Notes: a model not told the origin generated them from the sequence alone. DNA of 64,000 nucleotides from Nitrosarchaeum sp. (GCA_025699025.1 JAILWJ010000003.1:340192-404191); one strand, 5' to 3'. Positions 7,169-12,894 are shown, counted from the stretch's first letter. A program made the numbers and translations.

Positions 7169-7843
7169 TTGTCCTACGATGATGCCATAGAGGCATTATC
7201 AAATGACGCATCAAAATTAGTCAAAGATAATTCTGTGATTGGGTTAGGCAGTGGGAGAGCAGCAACTACGCTTGTCAAATCACTTTCAAAATTAATTAAA
7301 ATTAAAAACTACAACATAAAAGGAGTTCCAACATCGTTGCAAATTAAACAGATTGCTGAAAAAATGGGAATGCCATTAATAGAAGCTGATCAAGTGGAAT
7401 ACATCGATATCGTGTTTGATGGTGCAGATCAAATAGACTCTGAAAAATTTGTGATGAAAGGAGGAGGAGGAGCACTACTCCGTGAAAACATATTGTTTAG
7501 CTTGGCAAAGAAAGTCGTTGTCATGGCTGACAAATCTAAATTTGTTAAAAATTTTACAAGATCTGTTCCAGTTGAAGTTCATCCGCTTGCAAGAAACTCT
7601 GTATCATCGGCAATACAGAAGCTGGGCGGAAAAGCAAATCTTCGCACGTTAGATAGGGGGTATCCGTTCTTCACAGAGAATGGGAATATTATTTTAGATT
7701 GTGATTTTGGTACAATAAAAAATCCAAAAGTATTGACACAAAAAATCAGGTTGATTCCAGGAGTAATGGAATCGGGAATATTTCTACGAAAACCAGATAT
7801 TATTTACAGGGCAAATACTGGCGGAAAATTTGAGATTTTCTAG
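7169..7843 (+). CDS. rpiA: Ribose-5-phosphate isomerase A
   Basis: Interconverts ribose-5-phosphate and ribulose-5-phosphate, feeding PRPP, histidine and nucleotide synthesis. Family motifs are IGLGSGRAATTLVK, VFDGADQID, MKGGGGALLRE and the MADKSKFVKNF segment. It starts with TTG directly after the upstream stop. Its stop codon overlaps that of the convergent gene by 4 nt. Confidence 0.94.
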   Translation: MSYDDAIEALSNDASKLVKDNSVIGLGSGRAATTLVKSLSKLIKIKNYNIKGVPTSLQIKQIAEKMGMPLIEADQVEYIDIVFDGADQIDSEKFVMKGGGGALLRENILFSLAKKVVVMADKSKFVKNFTRSVPVEVHPLARNSVSSAIQKLGGKANLRTLDRGYPFFTENGNIILDCDFGTIKNPKVLTQKIRLIPGVMESGIFLRKPDIIYRANTGGKFEIF

Positions 7844-8784
7844 TTAGTGTTTTCGTGTCTAATCGTATTCATGAATTCCTCATGCTCAAGCATATATTCA
7901 ATCATTTTTTGCCTAATTTCAGGATCACCCATCATATGAGTTAGCATAGGTCTCATCATTTCATCAGACATTTTCTCCATGTGATGAGGATTTTCAAGCA
8001 TTTTTTGATGCATTTCTGCCATCAAACCAGAATCTATCCACATACTATGCATCATATCCATCATTCTATCATAGTTTGAAAAACCTCGAAGATTATCAGA
8101 CATTGATTTATTCATTCCATGACTCATTCCGGACATGCCATGATTCACATCTTTATTCATAGAATGATCTGCGGTTTTATTCATAGAATTACCCATGGTT
8201 TTATTCATCACATTAGGCATGTGAACCGATGACATCCATCTTTCATCTGCATGCATTGCGTCTTCCATGTGAGGATGACTCTTCATAATTTCAATCATTT
8301 GGATCCGAAGTTCTGGATTAGACACCATTGGAGACATAACATGATCAAAAAGTTTTGGATTATTCTTCATTTGAGAAATCATTTCTTTCATGCTTTCTTG
8401 CATTATCTTTGGATTATCTTGCATCATATCATGCCAATGAGACATTAGTTCCTTGTTTGAGGCAATATTTTTTATCAGGGATTCTGTCATTGCAGGTCTT
8501 TTAGTCAACAATGAAGAGTCAAACATGCCATAACCTCTATCAACTAATTTTAGATATGCGGTTGGAGATACACATGCGGGTGCACCGTTGTATTTCTGCA
8601 ATAGCACTAGTCCATCTTTACAAGTAAGATGATCAACATCGCTTATCTCCTTCCATTGATGACGTGGGGGGATGACAGATTGTGCAAATGAGTCATTTAG
8701 TGAAATGAACAAGATGCCAATAACCACAGAAAAAACTAGGAGAAATGTTACCTTTTGCATGAGTGCATGTAAGTTTTTTGACAT
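7840..8784 (-). CDS. Secreted Met/His-rich protein, possible copper-binding
   Basis: 314 residues with an N-terminal signal or anchor (VTFLLVFSVVIGILFISLND ending SFAQ, about residues 12-35). Residues 38-80 carry a small domain with two Cys (LTCKDGLVLLQKYNG, PACVSPTAYLKLVDRG) that I recall from other thaumarchaeal exported proteins. From about residue 100 on, the chain is packed with Met and His, in repeated helices of the type NP-x-M-x-x-x-M, with a MNKTMGNSMNKTADHSMNKD repeat in the middle. Met-motif chains of this kind bind Cu(I) in other families. The ammonia-oxidation chain is copper-dependent, so copper handling is plausible but unproven. Confidence 0.85.
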   Translation of the reverse strand: MSKNLHALMQKVTFLLVFSVVIGILFISLNDSFAQSVIPPRHQWKEISDVDHLTCKDGLVLLQKYNGAPACVSPTAYLKLVDRGYGMFDSSLLTKRPAMTESLIKNIASNKELMSHWHDMMQDNPKIMQESMKEMISQMKNNPKLFDHVMSPMVSNPELRIQMIEIMKSHPHMEDAMHADERWMSSVHMPNVMNKTMGNSMNKTADHSMNKDVNHGMSGMSHGMNKSMSDNLRGFSNYDRMMDMMHSMWIDSGLMAEMHQKMLENPHHMEKMSDEMMRPMLTHMMGDPEIRQKMIEYMLEHEEFMNTIRHENTN

Positions 8785-8803: not shown

Positions 8804-10195
8804 TCAATTAACAGATCTTGGAACTAGTTTTCCATGTCCAACTTTGCCAATCACTTGAAAGTCTTCTGCAACTACTTCTCCCCTAACAATAGTTTTTACA
8901 GGCCATCCTTTGAGGTTTCTTCCTTCATAAACAATGTAATCAGAAAACCCACCAAACAGATCATTAGATACTTTGTTTTCTTTTTTCAAATCAATCAGTA
9001 CAACATCAGCATCTGAATTTTTTTCTATAGTTCCTTTTTGTGGATACATGCCAAAAATCTTTGCGGCATTTTGACTTGTAAATTTTACAAATTGCTCCAA
9101 GCTTATTCTGTTTTTGTTTACTCCTTCACTAAGCAAAATTGGAATAACTGTCCCTATACCTGGAAAACCGGCTAATGCACTCCAAACATCATCCCCGCCA
9201 AGTTTCAGTTTGAGTCTGTTTGCCACATGATCCGTTCCTATGGTATCAATGAGGTTGTGGGATAATGCAGTCCAAACTGCTTTGTTGTCTCTTTCTGTAC
9301 GGATGGGAGGCATTACTTTGGCAAGATATCCATTTTGTTTTTCATATGATAATGTCATATAATGTGGGCAAGTTTCTACAAAAATTTTGGTTCCAAGCTT
9401 TCTTTCCTCATCAATTTGGTGTAAGGCTCTTTCTGAGCCAATATGTACAAAGTAAATTACACAGTCATAGGTTCGTCCATATTTGCATACAGTTTTGATT
9501 GCCTTGGCTTCAAATTCAGGTGAACGGCTTTCAGACCATGCAGAAAGACCGTCTTGTTTTTTTTCTTTGGCTTTCTTGATTCCACATGCGCATGATTCAT
9601 AATCTTCTGCATGTACCAATACAGGACATTTCAATGAAGCTGCTTTTCTTACGGTATTCTCGACAATTTTTTCATTGACATCAACTTCTGCTTCAACAAG
9701 ATTAGAAGAATATGGTGGCATGTCCATATAGACATGTCCAACTTCCCCTCCAAGATTCATGTAAATTTTAAAAGAGGTGATGCCATTATCAACACAGAAC
9801 TTCATTTCATCAATTTGTTGCGGCGTAAATATTGAAGCATGTATCGCATAATCCACATAATGGTATTTTGCCATTGCTTCAAGCTGTTCCCGTAGAGTTT
9901 TTTGGAATGAATTTCCAAGTCTTAACATCCTCATCATAGTTGTAATTCCACCAATTGCTGCTGCATGTGACTCAGTTTTTGCAGCTTCATTTATGGGAGA
10001 ATAAACTCCATAATGAACATGGGTATCAATTGGTCCCGGTACAGAAATGAGCCCATTTCCATCAATTGTATTATCACATGAAGGAGTGTCATGAGTTAAT
10101 CCAACAATTTTGCCATCATCAATTATTATGTTCTTGTCAATCATTCCGTGTGGTAATATAACATGAGAGTTTTTAATCAGAGTATCATAGGTCAT
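8804..10195 (-). CDS. Cyclic amidohydrolase (dihydropyrimidinase/hydantoinase/dihydroorotase family)
   Basis: TIM-barrel metal-dependent amidohydrolase of 463 residues. The metal site shows PGPIDTHVHYG, the carbamylated lysine TSFKIYMNLG, PVLVHAEDYE and YFVHIGSERAL, and the last Asp is in IGTDHVANR. Length and the KIYMN segment favour the D-hydantoinase/allantoinase branch over short dihydroorotases. No pyrimidine genes flank it, so the substrate is open. A TATA-like AATAATAAA lies about 28 nt before the ATG. Confidence 0.88.
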   Translation of the reverse strand: MTYDTLIKNSHVILPHGMIDKNIIIDDGKIVGLTHDTPSCDNTIDGNGLISVPGPIDTHVHYGVYSPINEAAKTESHAAAIGGITTMMRMLRLGNSFQKTLREQLEAMAKYHYVDYAIHASIFTPQQIDEMKFCVDNGITSFKIYMNLGGEVGHVYMDMPPYSSNLVEAEVDVNEKIVENTVRKAASLKCPVLVHAEDYESCACGIKKAKEKKQDGLSAWSESRSPEFEAKAIKTVCKYGRTYDCVIYFVHIGSERALHQIDEERKLGTKIFVETCPHYMTLSYEKQNGYLAKVMPPIRTERDNKAVWTALSHNLIDTIGTDHVANRLKLKLGGDDVWSALAGFPGIGTVIPILLSEGVNKNRISLEQFVKFTSQNAAKIFGMYPQKGTIEKNSDADVVLIDLKKENKVSNDLFGGFSDYIVYEGRNLKGWPVKTIVRGEVVAEDFQVIGKVGHGKLVPRSVN

Positions 10196-10314: not shown

Positions 10315-11655
10315 CTAGAGGTTTGCAGATAATGTCTTTTTGCCAAGCAGTTCGTTGTATAATGATACTGCCTCTTGTTCGTCTTTCGGGCCTACAACCA
10401 CTGCAGATCCCTTTTTCATAAAACTTACAGACATTTCATTTGTCCTCATTGATAGTCCCAGTTCGCCCTGATTCTCTACCAAAAACCCCTTTTGCTTTGC
10501 AATGTCTGTTACCATGCCAACATCAAGATCAAACGTACTAGTTGGCGTAATTGAAAATGTCCTTTTTCCGCGATTCCTGCCGCACAATTCCTCTAGAATT
10601 AGCTCCTCTTTAACAGACTCTTCCTGTTTTCCGGAACCGCATACAGGACATTCTTCTGCCCTAAAGGTACGGGTTGTGGTAAAGTCCAGATTCTCAATAT
10701 CAATATGCAGAATTTTATCAGACAGACTAGGCTTTTTGCCCATGATTACCTTTACTGCCTCTGCAACCTCTATTCCACCAACAATGGACAGTATTGAAGG
10801 ATGCACTCCTTCAATGCTACACGTAGGCATGGTATCTTCGTTTAAATCTGGAAACATGCAAAAATAGCACGCGCTGGTTTTTGGAATGATGGTAAACACT
10901 TGGCCGGATACTCCTACTGCAGCTCCCGTAACAAACGGAATTCCAAACTTTACACATGCTTTGTTTAGTGCATATCGTGCATTGACGCTATCTAATGCAT
11001 CTACTACTACGTCACATCCTTCAACTACCTCAAGCGCAGTGTATTCATTTACAGATATTGCAAGAGCCTCTATCTTGCAGTCAGGGTTTAGCTTTTGCAG
11101 TTTCTTTGCAGCAACTTCGACTTTGACCTGACCAACGTCATCTTCATCAAACATCGTTTGTCTGTGCAGATTTGATAATTCAATTACGTCTCTGTCAACA
11201 ATACGTAGTGTACCAACTCCCATTGCCGCAAGCCGTGATGTTATTGGGTTGCCAAGGCCACCAGTTCCAACAACACATATCTTTGCGTTTTTTAGTTTCA
11301 ATTGGCCAGTATAGCCAATCTCCTCAAGCATCACCTGTCGTGAGAACTTGTCAAGCTCCTTTTTTGTAAGTTCCCCAGATCCACCTGCAACTGCAGGTAA
11401 AATATACACCTCGTCTCCGTCATTGAGTGCAGTCTCCATGCCGCCAGAAAACTTGGCGTTCTTGCCGTTGATGTAAATGTTAATCAAAGATCGTGGAGTG
11501 CCGTCTCCTTCCAATACACGTCGCTTAAAGTCATCACCCATCACTTGAGATATTTTTGCAAATGCATCCTGCAGGTTTGATGCAGTTATTGGAGTTTTTT
11601 TCTCACCGCCTCCAGAATTTAGTACTGACGGAATTGTAAATGTAATATTTGCCAT
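10315..11655 (-). CDS. MoaD/ThiS-like domain fused to ThiF/MoeB/E1-type adenylyltransferase
   Basis: 446 residues in three parts. Residues 1-92 look like a MoaD-type ubiquitin fold: LQDAFAKISQVMG, RSLINIYINGKN, ETALNDGDEVYILPAVAGG. Residues 95-350 are an E1-like adenylating enzyme: GTGGLGNPITSRLAAMGVG (ATP loop), VDRDVIELSNLHRQ, the paired Cys of ACYFCMFP and CPVCGSG (zinc), and PTCSIEGVHPSI with a candidate catalytic Cys. Residues 350-446 are an extra domain I do not recognise. The Gly-Gly of the carrier is internal (AVAGGSG), so it needs cleavage or works in cis. It abuts thrC directly (11655/11656), implying coupled expression. Confidence 0.88.
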   Translation of the reverse strand: MANITFTIPSVLNSGGGEKKTPITASNLQDAFAKISQVMGDDFKRRVLEGDGTPRSLINIYINGKNAKFSGGMETALNDGDEVYILPAVAGGSGELTKKELDKFSRQVMLEEIGYTGQLKLKNAKICVVGTGGLGNPITSRLAAMGVGTLRIVDRDVIELSNLHRQTMFDEDDVGQVKVEVAAKKLQKLNPDCKIEALAISVNEYTALEVVEGCDVVVDALDSVNARYALNKACVKFGIPFVTGAAVGVSGQVFTIIPKTSACYFCMFPDLNEDTMPTCSIEGVHPSILSIVGGIEVAEAVKVIMGKKPSLSDKILHIDIENLDFTTTRTFRAEECPVCGSGKQEESVKEELILEELCGRNRGKRTFSITPTSTFDLDVGMVTDIAKQKGFLVENQGELGLSMRTNEMSVSFMKKGSAVVVGPKDEQEAVSLYNELLGKKTLSANL

Positions 11656-12894
11656 TTAACTTACTACCGCCGAGATTTCATTAATGTCTGCCTTCATTAT
11701 TTTTGGCTTTTGCAAAACTTCCATGATCGATTCTGTTGCCTTGAGACCGTTTCCAGTAACATAGCAGACTACTTTGTCATTTTTGTCAATCTTGCCCTGT
11801 TCTATCATCTTTTGCAGTACTGCAACAGATACCCCACCTGCAGGCTCCGTAAATACGCCTTCGGTCTTTGCCAAAAGAAGTATTGCATCAAGTATCTCCT
11901 TGTTGTTGCATTCTTCTGCAAACCCGTTGTACTGTGCCAGTCTCTTCAGCACGTATCGCCCATCTCCAGGATCACCTATTGCAAGACTCTTTGCTATGGT
12001 ATCAGGATGCTCCACTGGAATTACCTCTTTTGATTTTCTCTTGAATGCATCAACTACTGGGGCGCATCCATGTGGCTGTGCTGCAATCATGTGCATATTT
12101 GCAACATTGCCAAGAAGAGATACTGTCTGCAGCTCCTCAAATCCCTTGCAAATTGCATTGAGCATTGCACCGCTTCCAACGGGAACAACCAGATGGTCAG
12201 GTACTTGCCATCCAAGCTGTTCTGCTACTTCATATGCCAAAGTTTTTGATCCTTCGACATAGTGGGAACGCATGTTAATGTTTACAATTCCAATTCCCTT
12301 GGAATCGCCAATCTGTGCAGCTATTCTGTTTGCATCATCATATGTCCCATCCACAGCGATATAGTTTGCACCATATGACAACGCCTGAGTGATCTTTGCC
12401 ATCTCTATGTTGCTTGGCGCAAACACATGACATGGAAAACCACCTTTTGCGGCGTGTGCTGCAGTTGCTGATGCCAGGTTGCCAGTTGATGCACATCCAA
12501 CTGCCGACAAGCCAAACTCTTTTGCCTTTGATACTGCAACACCGGCAGGTCTGTCCTTAAATGAGAATGTAGGATTGACTGAATCGTTTTTGATGTACAG
12601 ATTATTCAACCCAAGTTTCTTTCCCAGATTATCGGCTTTTGTAAGTGGGGTCATGCCAGCATCAATGCTGACAATGTTTGACTTGTTTTCAATTGGCAAT
12701 AATTCAAAATATCTCCAGTATGTATTTTCACGATTTGAAAAAGTGTCTCTAGTAATTGATGGAAAATTATACTTTACATCAAGCGGTCCAAAGCAGTCAT
12801 CACAGATATACTTGAATGTCGACTCGTACTCTTTTTTGCACTCCCTACACTGTAATGATGTCCTAGCCAAGATCATTTCCTCCTTTTGTATCAT
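11656..12894 (-). CDS. thrC: Threonine synthase (PLP-dependent)
   Basis: Converts O-phosphohomoserine to threonine, or a related PLP beta/gamma replacement. The N-terminal zinc ribbon is QCRECKKEYE with YICDDCFGPL. The PLP lysine lies in NPTFSFKDRPAGVAVSKA, followed by GCASTGNLASATAAHAAKGG and a phosphate loop VPVGSGAMLNAI. 412 residues is normal for archaeal ThrC. The start is ATG at 12894; an ATG six codons later lies just behind GGAGGAA but too close for ideal spacing. The partnership with the carrier-E1 fusion downstream raises an alternative sulfur-transfer role. Confidence 0.9.
   Translation of the reverse strand: MIQKEEMILARTSLQCRECKKEYESTFKYICDDCFGPLDVKYNFPSITRDTFSNRENTYWRYFELLPIENKSNIVSIDAGMTPLTKADNLGKKLGLNNLYIKNDSVNPTFSFKDRPAGVAVSKAKEFGLSAVGCASTGNLASATAAHAAKGGFPCHVFAPSNIEMAKITQALSYGANYIAVDGTYDDANRIAAQIGDSKGIGIVNINMRSHYVEGSKTLAYEVAEQLGWQVPDHLVVPVGSGAMLNAICKGFEELQTVSLLGNVANMHMIAAQPHGCAPVVDAFKRKSKEVIPVEHPDTIAKSLAIGDPGDGRYVLKRLAQYNGFAEECNNKEILDAILLLAKTEGVFTEPAGGVSVAVLQKMIEQGKIDKNDKVVCYVTGNGLKATESIMEVLQKPKIMKADINEISAVVS

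What the first reader, a model, noticed from the sequence alone, without database searches (positions are those of the whole stretch)
10315..12894. Ubiquitin-like carrier fused to its E1 enzyme, coupled to threonine synthase
A MoaD-type domain ending in Gly-Gly is joined to a ThiF/MoeB-type activator, with an extra C-terminal domain, and abuts thrC. PLP synthases that use carrier thiocarboxylates (CysM with CysO, HcyS systems) have this kind of pairing. The locus may make cysteine, homocysteine or another sulfur compound through a carrier-PLP route. Alternatively ThrC is ordinary and the fusion is unrelated. The internal GG implies cleavage or cis action.
Basis: partly seen in the sequence, partly recalled or inferred. 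Interest (0 to 1): 0.62.

Follow-up and report, generated by a model that had tools for sequence, protein, structure and literature searches.

The report
Sulfur-carrier methionine pathway, carrier fused to E1
In ammonia-oxidising archaea, a misnamed 'threonine synthase' and a ubiquitin-like sulfur carrier made as one chain with its activating enzyme are, by strong genomic evidence, the missing route to homocysteine and methionine; the same enzyme-carrier pair was recently described in Streptomyces, and the fusion is a new archaeal form of it.

Summary
Observation confirmed: 10315-11655(-) encodes a CysO-like ubiquitin fold ending Ala-Gly-Gly, fused to a MoeB/ThiF E1 with a known-type C-terminal extension; 11656-12894(-) encodes a ThrC-fold enzyme immediately upstream. 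The 'ThrC' is not canonical. It belongs to one clade (100/100 support) across archaea and bacteria with replaced ThrC motifs; in 109 of 128 loci a carrier gene lies within 100 bp downstream (0 of 21 canonical ThrC loci). Bacterial operons combine it with homoserine dehydrogenase, TusA, sulfite reductase, JAMM protease, a NIL domain and a separate canonical ThrC; 16 of 40 bacterial loci carry a SAM-I riboswitch. Ammonia-oxidising archaea lack the known homocysteine synthases tested but need homocysteine for MetH. Best reading: O-phosphohomoserine plus carrier-thiocarboxylate gives homocysteine. This matches MetM/MetO (Hasebe 2024, Streptomyces; known to me only through a citing paper). New here: the archaeal assignment and the carrier-E1 fusion with an internal, invariant GG (49/49), which probably needs cutting; a Cenarchaeum relative encodes the carrier alone, stopping exactly at GG. 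Chemistry, cleavage and the protease are inferred, not shown.

The parts
11656..12894 (-). ThrC-like PLP enzyme (MetM-type clade, 'ThrCL'), 412 aa; proposed thiocarboxylate-dependent homocysteine synthase
   Evidence: PALP 1.1e-74; one clade with 100/100 support, separate from canonical ThrC; fold matches ThrC structures
12793..12849 (-). N-terminal zinc-ribbon-like CREC...CDDC (residues 16-34)
   Evidence: conserved in most of alignment A1
12550..12564 (-). PLP-lysine motif SFKDR (K113)
   Evidence: invariant in A1
12475..12489 (-). STGNL replacing canonical STGNT
12241..12282 (-). Clade motif NINMRSHYVEGSKT replacing canonical NSxNPxRxEGQKT of ThrC
10315..11655 (-). Ubl-E1 fusion protein, 446 aa
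   Evidence: ThiS and ThiF domains; fused in 49 homologous loci
11380..11655 (-). Ubiquitin-like sulfur-carrier domain (residues 1-92), CysO/SAMP1-like
   Evidence: ThiS 2e-8; CysO 3dwg 2.3e-11
11380..11385 (-). Internal Gly91-Gly92, proposed mature C-terminus after cleavage
   Evidence: 49/49 conserved; residues 90-92 pLDDT <50; standalone homologues often end exactly here
11347..11379 (-). Linker (residues 93-103) between carrier and E1; 10-48 aa between GG and the [FY]SRQ motif in homologues
10621..11346 (-). E1 adenylation domain (residues 104-345) with GTGGLG, LHRQ, PTC (proposed catalytic Cys, residue 279) and CxxC...CxxC
   Evidence: Foldseek to ThiF/MoeB/Uba4
10318..10620 (-). C-terminal E1 extension with conserved EELCGR
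   Evidence: alignment A2; PRK12475 covers it

Best explanation
The locus is a protein-thiocarboxylate-dependent homocysteine synthase system of the MetM/MetO kind. Proposed steps: (1) the fusion is cut after Gly92, probably by a JAMM/desampylase-type protease encoded elsewhere in the genome, freeing a carrier with a C-terminal Gly-Gly; (2) the E1 half adenylates that glycine and a sulfur donor (TusA, or sulfide from sulfite reduction) converts it to the thiocarboxylate; (3) the ThrC-like PLP enzyme removes phosphate from O-phosphohomoserine and adds the carrier thiocarboxylate at the gamma carbon; (4) after an S-to-N acyl shift the JAMM protease, or hydrolysis, releases homocysteine for the cobalamin-dependent methionine synthase. 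Supported by comparative genomics: the clade, the conserved pairing, the methionine context, the missing alternatives. Inferred: every chemical step, the cleavage and which protease does it. The substrate O-phosphohomoserine is carried over from MetM.
For: Pairing: carrier gene within 100 bp downstream on the same strand in 109 of 128 ThrC-like loci, 10 more within 1.5 kb (a few loci are duplicates across collections), against 0 of 21 canonical ThrC loci (Fisher 7e-15, not corrected for kinship). The ThrC-like enzymes form one clade, 100/100, and lack canonical ThrC motifs. Standalone carriers end exactly in GG in 38 of 70 and most others within 15 aa. Operons: L115 ThrCL-carrier-homoserine dehydrogenase-E1-sulfite reductase-TusA; L138 HomDH-TusA-E1-JAMM-ThrCL-carrier-NIL-canonical ThrC; carrier-NIL fusions in L132 and L182. 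SAM-I riboswitch in 16 of 40 bacterial loci scanned, 15 directly upstream of ThrCL. Own genome: no PF01053 hit above 35 bits, no HcyBio, canonical ThrC present elsewhere. None of the ammonia-oxidising-archaea genomes in the sample has PF01053 at E<1e-30 or HcyBio; these archaea have methionine synthase MetH (PMC5817080, PMC4303638). Among 250 other Thermoproteota genomes the clade and the other routes anti-correlate: 14 both, 27 ThrCL only, 154 other route only, 55 neither, p=2.4e-6 (not corrected for kinship). Cleavage: Cenarchaeum L147 encodes the carrier alone, stopping exactly at AVAGG; GG tail modelled with low confidence, as expected if flexible; two JAMM proteins with intact HxHx7SxxD in the genome, one matching 'desampylase'.
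Against: No biochemistry for any archaeal member. The Microcystis homologue was reported to make threonine from O-phosphohomoserine and to deaminate threonine, and its authors saw no rise in methionine (PMC12172450). TIGR00260 threonine synthase scores this protein above its cut-off (292.8 against 167.1), although that model also accepts the bacterial clade member that sits beside a true ThrC. Five of 50 ammonia-oxidiser genomes, 98-99% complete, lack the clade and their source of homocysteine is unknown. Nine of 128 loci show no carrier (some at contig ends; all four f16 loci examined). JAMM is not linked to the locus in this genome, and its desampylase match is below the curated cut-off (52.6 against 130 bits). 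No SAM riboswitch in the window. Homoserine kinase and MetX were not searched for in this genome.
Confidence: 0.78

Rival explanations
1. The carrier-E1 fusion feeds cysteine synthesis: the carrier thiocarboxylate is used by the CysM-like enzyme elsewhere in the genome (L093:7310-8302), as CysO-CysM-Mec does in M. tuberculosis, and the adjacent ThrC-like enzyme is a threonine synthase.
For: Carrier domain is closest to CysO among solved structures; a CysM/CysK-family enzyme lies next to TusA in this genome; a JAMM protein exists; some bacterial operons carry a CysM beside ThrCL.
Against: The carrier is paired with the ThrC-like gene, not with CysM, across two domains. In L165, L145 and L181 the cysteine synthase has its own separate ThiS-type carrier. 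A canonical ThrC exists in the genome. SAM riboswitches point to methionine. Dual use of the carrier is not excluded.
Confidence: 0.1
2. The fused carrier is never cut; it stays tethered and works in cis, or is a relic, while E1 acts on other carriers.
For: Fused in 49 loci with a linker of 10-48 residues between GG and the E1 start motif. No processing protease is encoded next to the locus. Other internal-GG MoaD fusions are known (MoaD-MoaE, PMC11237513).
Against: E1 chemistry needs a free C-terminal carboxylate (general knowledge of the E1 family). GG is invariant in 49/49. The only other carrier found in this genome is also an internal-GG fusion. A close relative encodes the carrier alone ending at GG.
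Confidence: 0.15
3. The fusion serves other thiolations (tRNA 2-thiouridine, molybdopterin) or protein modification of the SAMP type, and sits beside thrC by accident.
For: It is the only E1 found in the genome, so it may serve several carriers; the fusion has been listed as MoaD-MoeB under molybdopterin synthesis (PMC11237513).
Against: MoaE is absent from this genome and from every sampled member of its family. The ThrC-like/carrier pair persists across archaeal and bacterial phyla, often with no E1 nearby, so the pairing is not accidental.
Confidence: 0.07
4. The ThrC-like enzyme makes homocysteine from O-phosphohomoserine and free sulfide; the carrier only regulates or protects.
For: Some bacterial and f16 archaeal loci have ThrCL with no carrier seen nearby. 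PMC12172450 tested the Microcystis homologue with Na2S and saw an unidentified product peak.
Against: Near-universal pairing with a GG-ended carrier and frequent E1, TusA and JAMM neighbours.
Confidence: 0.08

Closest known systems
MetM/MetO homocysteine synthase and sulfur carrier, Streptomyces albulus (Hasebe et al. 2024, AEM 90:e01247-24; paper not held, known through PMC12172450)
   Same: According to PMC12172450 MetM converts O-phosphohomoserine to homocysteine, MetO is of the sulfur carrier family, and a cyanobacterial ThrC with a carrier gene next door is 51.6% identical to MetM. The order SAM riboswitch-ThrCL-carrier seen here in Nonomuraea fits what is described for S. albulus.
   Different: Archaeal; carrier fused to its E1 with an internal GG; no riboswitch in the window. 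MetM itself could not be aligned here.
CysO-CysM-Mec of M. tuberculosis
   Same: CysO is the closest solved carrier; same logic of carrier thiocarboxylate, PLP enzyme and JAMM protease.
   Different: PLP partner is a ThrC-fold enzyme, not CysM; product inferred to be homocysteine; carrier fused to E1.
Protein-thiocarboxylate methionine pathway of Wolinella with MetY (Krishnamoorthy and Begley 2011, cited in PMC5764234; details from memory)
   Same: Protein-thiocarboxylate methionine synthesis.
   Different: MetY is a PF01053 enzyme; none found in this genome.
Canonical threonine synthase (e.g. 2zsj, 1uim, 2c2b)
   Same: Fold and PLP core.
   Different: Motifs ASTGNT, NSxNPxRxEGQKT and GNAGN replaced by ASTGNL, NxNxRxxYxEGSKT and a loop with SGA or SGS; separate clade.
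MoaD-MoeB fusion of Thaumarchaeota (cluster 356.1, PMC11237513)
   Same: The same fusion by description, reported in 61 of 98 Thaumarchaeota assemblies.
   Different: There placed in molybdopterin synthesis; MoaE is absent here, and no link to thrC was noted.

Membership tests
MetM/MetO system | PLP enzyme of the ThrC fold outside the canonical ThrC clade, related to MetM | tested here: inconclusive
MetM/MetO system | Adjacent GG-ended sulfur carrier | tested here: met
   Directly downstream, GG conserved, here fused to E1.
MetM/MetO system | Converts O-phosphohomoserine to homocysteine | not testable with these tools
   Needs an assay.
MetM/MetO system | SAM riboswitch upstream (S. albulus; absent in Microcystis per PMC12172450, so not treated as defining) | tested here: not met
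   None in the window; present in 16 of 40 bacterial loci scanned.
Canonical threonine synthase | Canonical motifs NSxNPxRxEGQKT and ASTGNT | tested here: not met
   a second gene in the genome (L092) has both.
CysO-CysM-Mec | CysM-type PLP partner linked to the carrier | tested here: not met
   Linked partner is ThrC-like; the CysM-like gene is elsewhere.
Wolinella thiocarboxylate/MetY pathway | PF01053 sulfhydrylase | tested here: not met
   No hit above 35 bits in the genome.
DUF39/HcyBio pathway | PF01837 protein | tested here: not met
   None in the genome.
Molybdopterin synthesis (MoaD-MoeB) | MoaE partner | tested here: not met
   Absent.
MoeB/ThiF/UbaA E1 superfamily | ATP-binding GxGGxG, LHRQ, Cys in PTC, Zn CxxC pairs | tested here: met
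   Foldseek to ThiF, MoeB and Uba4.

The most novel reading that the evidence does not exclude
Ammonia-oxidising archaea make methionine through a MetM-type enzyme whose carrier is born as a proprotein on its own E1 and must be cut at an internal GG by a JAMM protease. The same architecture arose several times (ammonia oxidisers, G043, G229, a Hadesarchaeon), and every carrier found in this genome is made as an internal-GG precursor.
Probability: 0.5. Interest if true: 0.72.

Novelty: new variant of a known kind. Interest (0 to 1): 0.62.

Why it matters
Ammonia-oxidising archaea are abundant autotrophs with methionine synthase but, in these searches, no recognised homocysteine synthase. This locus offers one, and shows that genes labelled threonine synthase and MoaD-MoeB are probably a methionine pathway. 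Price et al. 2018 (PMC5764234) named organisms, including the actinobacterium Acidimicrobium ferrooxidans, whose homocysteine route was unknown; the pair occurs in Acidimicrobiales relatives (L134, L156, L198). The fusion also offers an experimental handle on processing of ubiquitin-like proproteins in archaea. Annotation of the clade as threonine synthase misleads metabolic models in several phyla.

Tried and rejected
Molybdopterin role: rejected, MoaE absent in all sampled genomes of the family and found in only 2 of 50 in the wider group. MetE as consumer: absent in nearly all of the family; the literature gives MetH instead. Extra C-terminal domain as a new module: rejected, shared with PRK12475. 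Free second carrier in the genome: only a Cgi121 fusion found. Apparent ThrC-carrier fusion in L155: artefact of an overlapping frame. The Hasebe 2024 paper is not in the library.

Full report
What is there. The window lies in a 1.7 Mb genome (G000:C3:340192-404191) whose relatives with the same fused locus are named Nitrosopumilus, Nitrosotalea, Nitrosotenuis, Cenarchaeum and Nitrososphaerales, so the organism is most likely an ammonia-oxidising archaeon of the Nitrosopumilaceae. ORF 11656-12894(-) encodes a 412-aa ThrC-fold PLP enzyme and ORF 10315-11655(-), starting at the next base, a 446-aa fusion: ubiquitin-like domain (ThiS, residues 27-92), linker, ThiF/MoeB E1 (104-337) and a C-terminal extension. 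The closest solved carrier is CysO of M. tuberculosis. The extension is also covered by NCBIfam PRK12475, so it is a known E1 feature.

The 'threonine synthase' is a different enzyme. The genome carries a second ThrC-type gene (L092:7208-8557) with the canonical motifs ASTGNT and NSINPFRIEGQKT, above the TIGR00260 cut-off. The window's enzyme and its relatives instead have ASTGNL, NxNxRxxYxEGSKT and a changed glycine loop. In a tree of 86 sequences they form one group of 60 rows with 100/100 support, archaea and bacteria together. In Thermoproteota they score at least 511 bits against at most 419 for other ThrC with the clade profile, apart from one truncated member at 438 bits. The predicted fold (pLDDT 89.5) matches ThrC structures. 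I recall, without testing it, that the replaced NSxNPxR stretch helps to bind the substrate's phosphate in ThrC.

The pairing is general. In 128 loci with a clade member, a carrier gene follows within 100 bp on the same strand in 109 and within 1.5 kb in 10 more (a few loci are the same record in two collections). Twenty-one canonical ThrC loci, including the second gene of this genome, show none. Phyla include Nitrospirota, Chloroflexota, Actinomycetota, Acidobacteriota, Myxococcota, Cyanobacteriota, Hadarchaeota and Thermoproteota. Separate carriers end exactly at GG in 38 of 70 cases and most others within 15 residues; three have about 80 more residues, which in the two tested is a NIL domain.

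The context is methionine. In G051 (L115) the order is ThrCL-carrier-homoserine dehydrogenase-E1-sulfite reductase-TusA, with DsrE, TusA, IscS and IscU genes upstream on the other strand. In a Thermodesulfovibrionia genome (L138) it is homoserine dehydrogenase-TusA-E1-JAMM-ThrCL-carrier-NIL-canonical ThrC: the clade enzyme stands beside a true threonine synthase. SAM-I riboswitches occur in 16 of 40 bacterial loci scanned, 15 of them within about 520 bp of the clade gene. NIL domains occur in the DUF39 homocysteine pathway (PMC5764234).

The gap it fills. This genome has no PF01053 enzyme beyond weak, short hits and no HcyBio. In the 300-genome sample none of the genomes of this family or order has PF01053 at E<1e-30 or HcyBio; 45 of 50 ammonia oxidisers have the clade enzyme. 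In the 250 other genomes the clade and the alternative routes avoid each other (14 both, 27 clade only, 154 alternative only, 55 neither; Fisher p=2.4e-6; not corrected for phylogeny). Ammonia-oxidising archaea need homocysteine for cobalamin-dependent methionine synthase (PMC5817080, PMC4303638), or for MetE in Nitrosocaldales (PMC7603488, PMC7819960). MoaE is missing throughout the sampled family, so the published filing of the fusion under molybdopterin synthesis (PMC11237513) does not fit here.

The fusion. Carrier and E1 are separate in most lineages outside the ammonia oxidisers, and fused in these and, apparently independently, in G043, G229 and a Hadesarchaeon. All 49 fused proteins keep GG at the junction (followed by Ser in 35), while the linker to the E1 start motif varies from 10 to 48 residues; in the model residues 90-92 are below pLDDT 50. 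E1 adenylation needs a free C-terminus, so the carrier should have to be cut, unless it works in an unknown cis mode. A Cenarchaeum genome (L147) encodes the carrier alone, ending exactly at AVAGG, with no E1 in the locus. The only other carrier found in the present genome is also an internal-GG fusion, to KEOPS Cgi121. Two JAMM proteins with intact HxHx7SxxD exist, one matching the desampylase model weakly (52.6 bits against a cut-off of 130); their role is a guess.

Known relatives and novelty. PMC12172450 cites Hasebe et al. 2024, who found MetM, a homocysteine synthase using O-phosphohomoserine, with MetO, a sulfur carrier, in Streptomyces albulus, under a SAM riboswitch, and it reports a cyanobacterial homologue with a carrier next door. 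I could not read the Hasebe paper or align MetM itself, but a Nonomuraea locus shows the same arrangement. An older survey of prokaryotic ubiquitin-like operons lists cysteine synthase but not threonine synthase (PMC1779556). I therefore file this as a new variant of the MetM/MetO kind: archaeal, with the carrier made as a precursor fused to its E1. I found no paper in the held library that assigns it in archaea. The main counter-evidence is that the Microcystis homologue was reported as a threonine synthase/deaminase, and that five near-complete ammonia-oxidiser genomes lack the locus.

Noticed in passing
L096:7954-8724(+) (G000:C2 about 435.95-436.72 kb): Second ubiquitin-like domain of the genome, ending ..IIPVIHGG, is fused N-terminally to KEOPS subunit Cgi121: another internal-GG carrier fusion.
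   Followed up: partly
window 7840-8784(-): 314-aa protein with a signal-like N-terminus, rich in Met and His (MSGMSHGMNKSM), no Pfam match above cut-off; may bind copper.
   Followed up: no
window 8804-10195(-): Dihydropyrimidinase/allantoinase-like amidohydrolase downstream of the fusion, below the curated NCBIfam cut-offs shown.
   Followed up: no
L132:7270-7785, L182:7275-7790, L174 (171-aa carrier ORF): Carrier with a C-terminal NIL domain (tested in L132 and L182) beside or near the ThrC-like gene in deltaproteobacterial lineages; free NIL-type proteins sit beside it in Nitrospirota and Chloroflexota.
   Followed up: partly
G068, G197, G215, G257, G287: Five Nitrosopumilaceae genomes, 98-99% complete, lack the ThrC-like clade; possible methionine auxotrophs or assembly gaps.
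   Followed up: no
L103-L106 (family f16): Clade members without any carrier or E1 nearby; may use a distant carrier or free sulfide.
   Followed up: no
L165:1510-3096, L145:4375-5944, L181:3939-5077: Bacterial operons with a second, ThiS-type carrier next to (in L145 apparently fused to) a cysteine synthase, beside the ThrC-like/carrier pair: perhaps parallel cysteine and homocysteine branches.
   Followed up: partly
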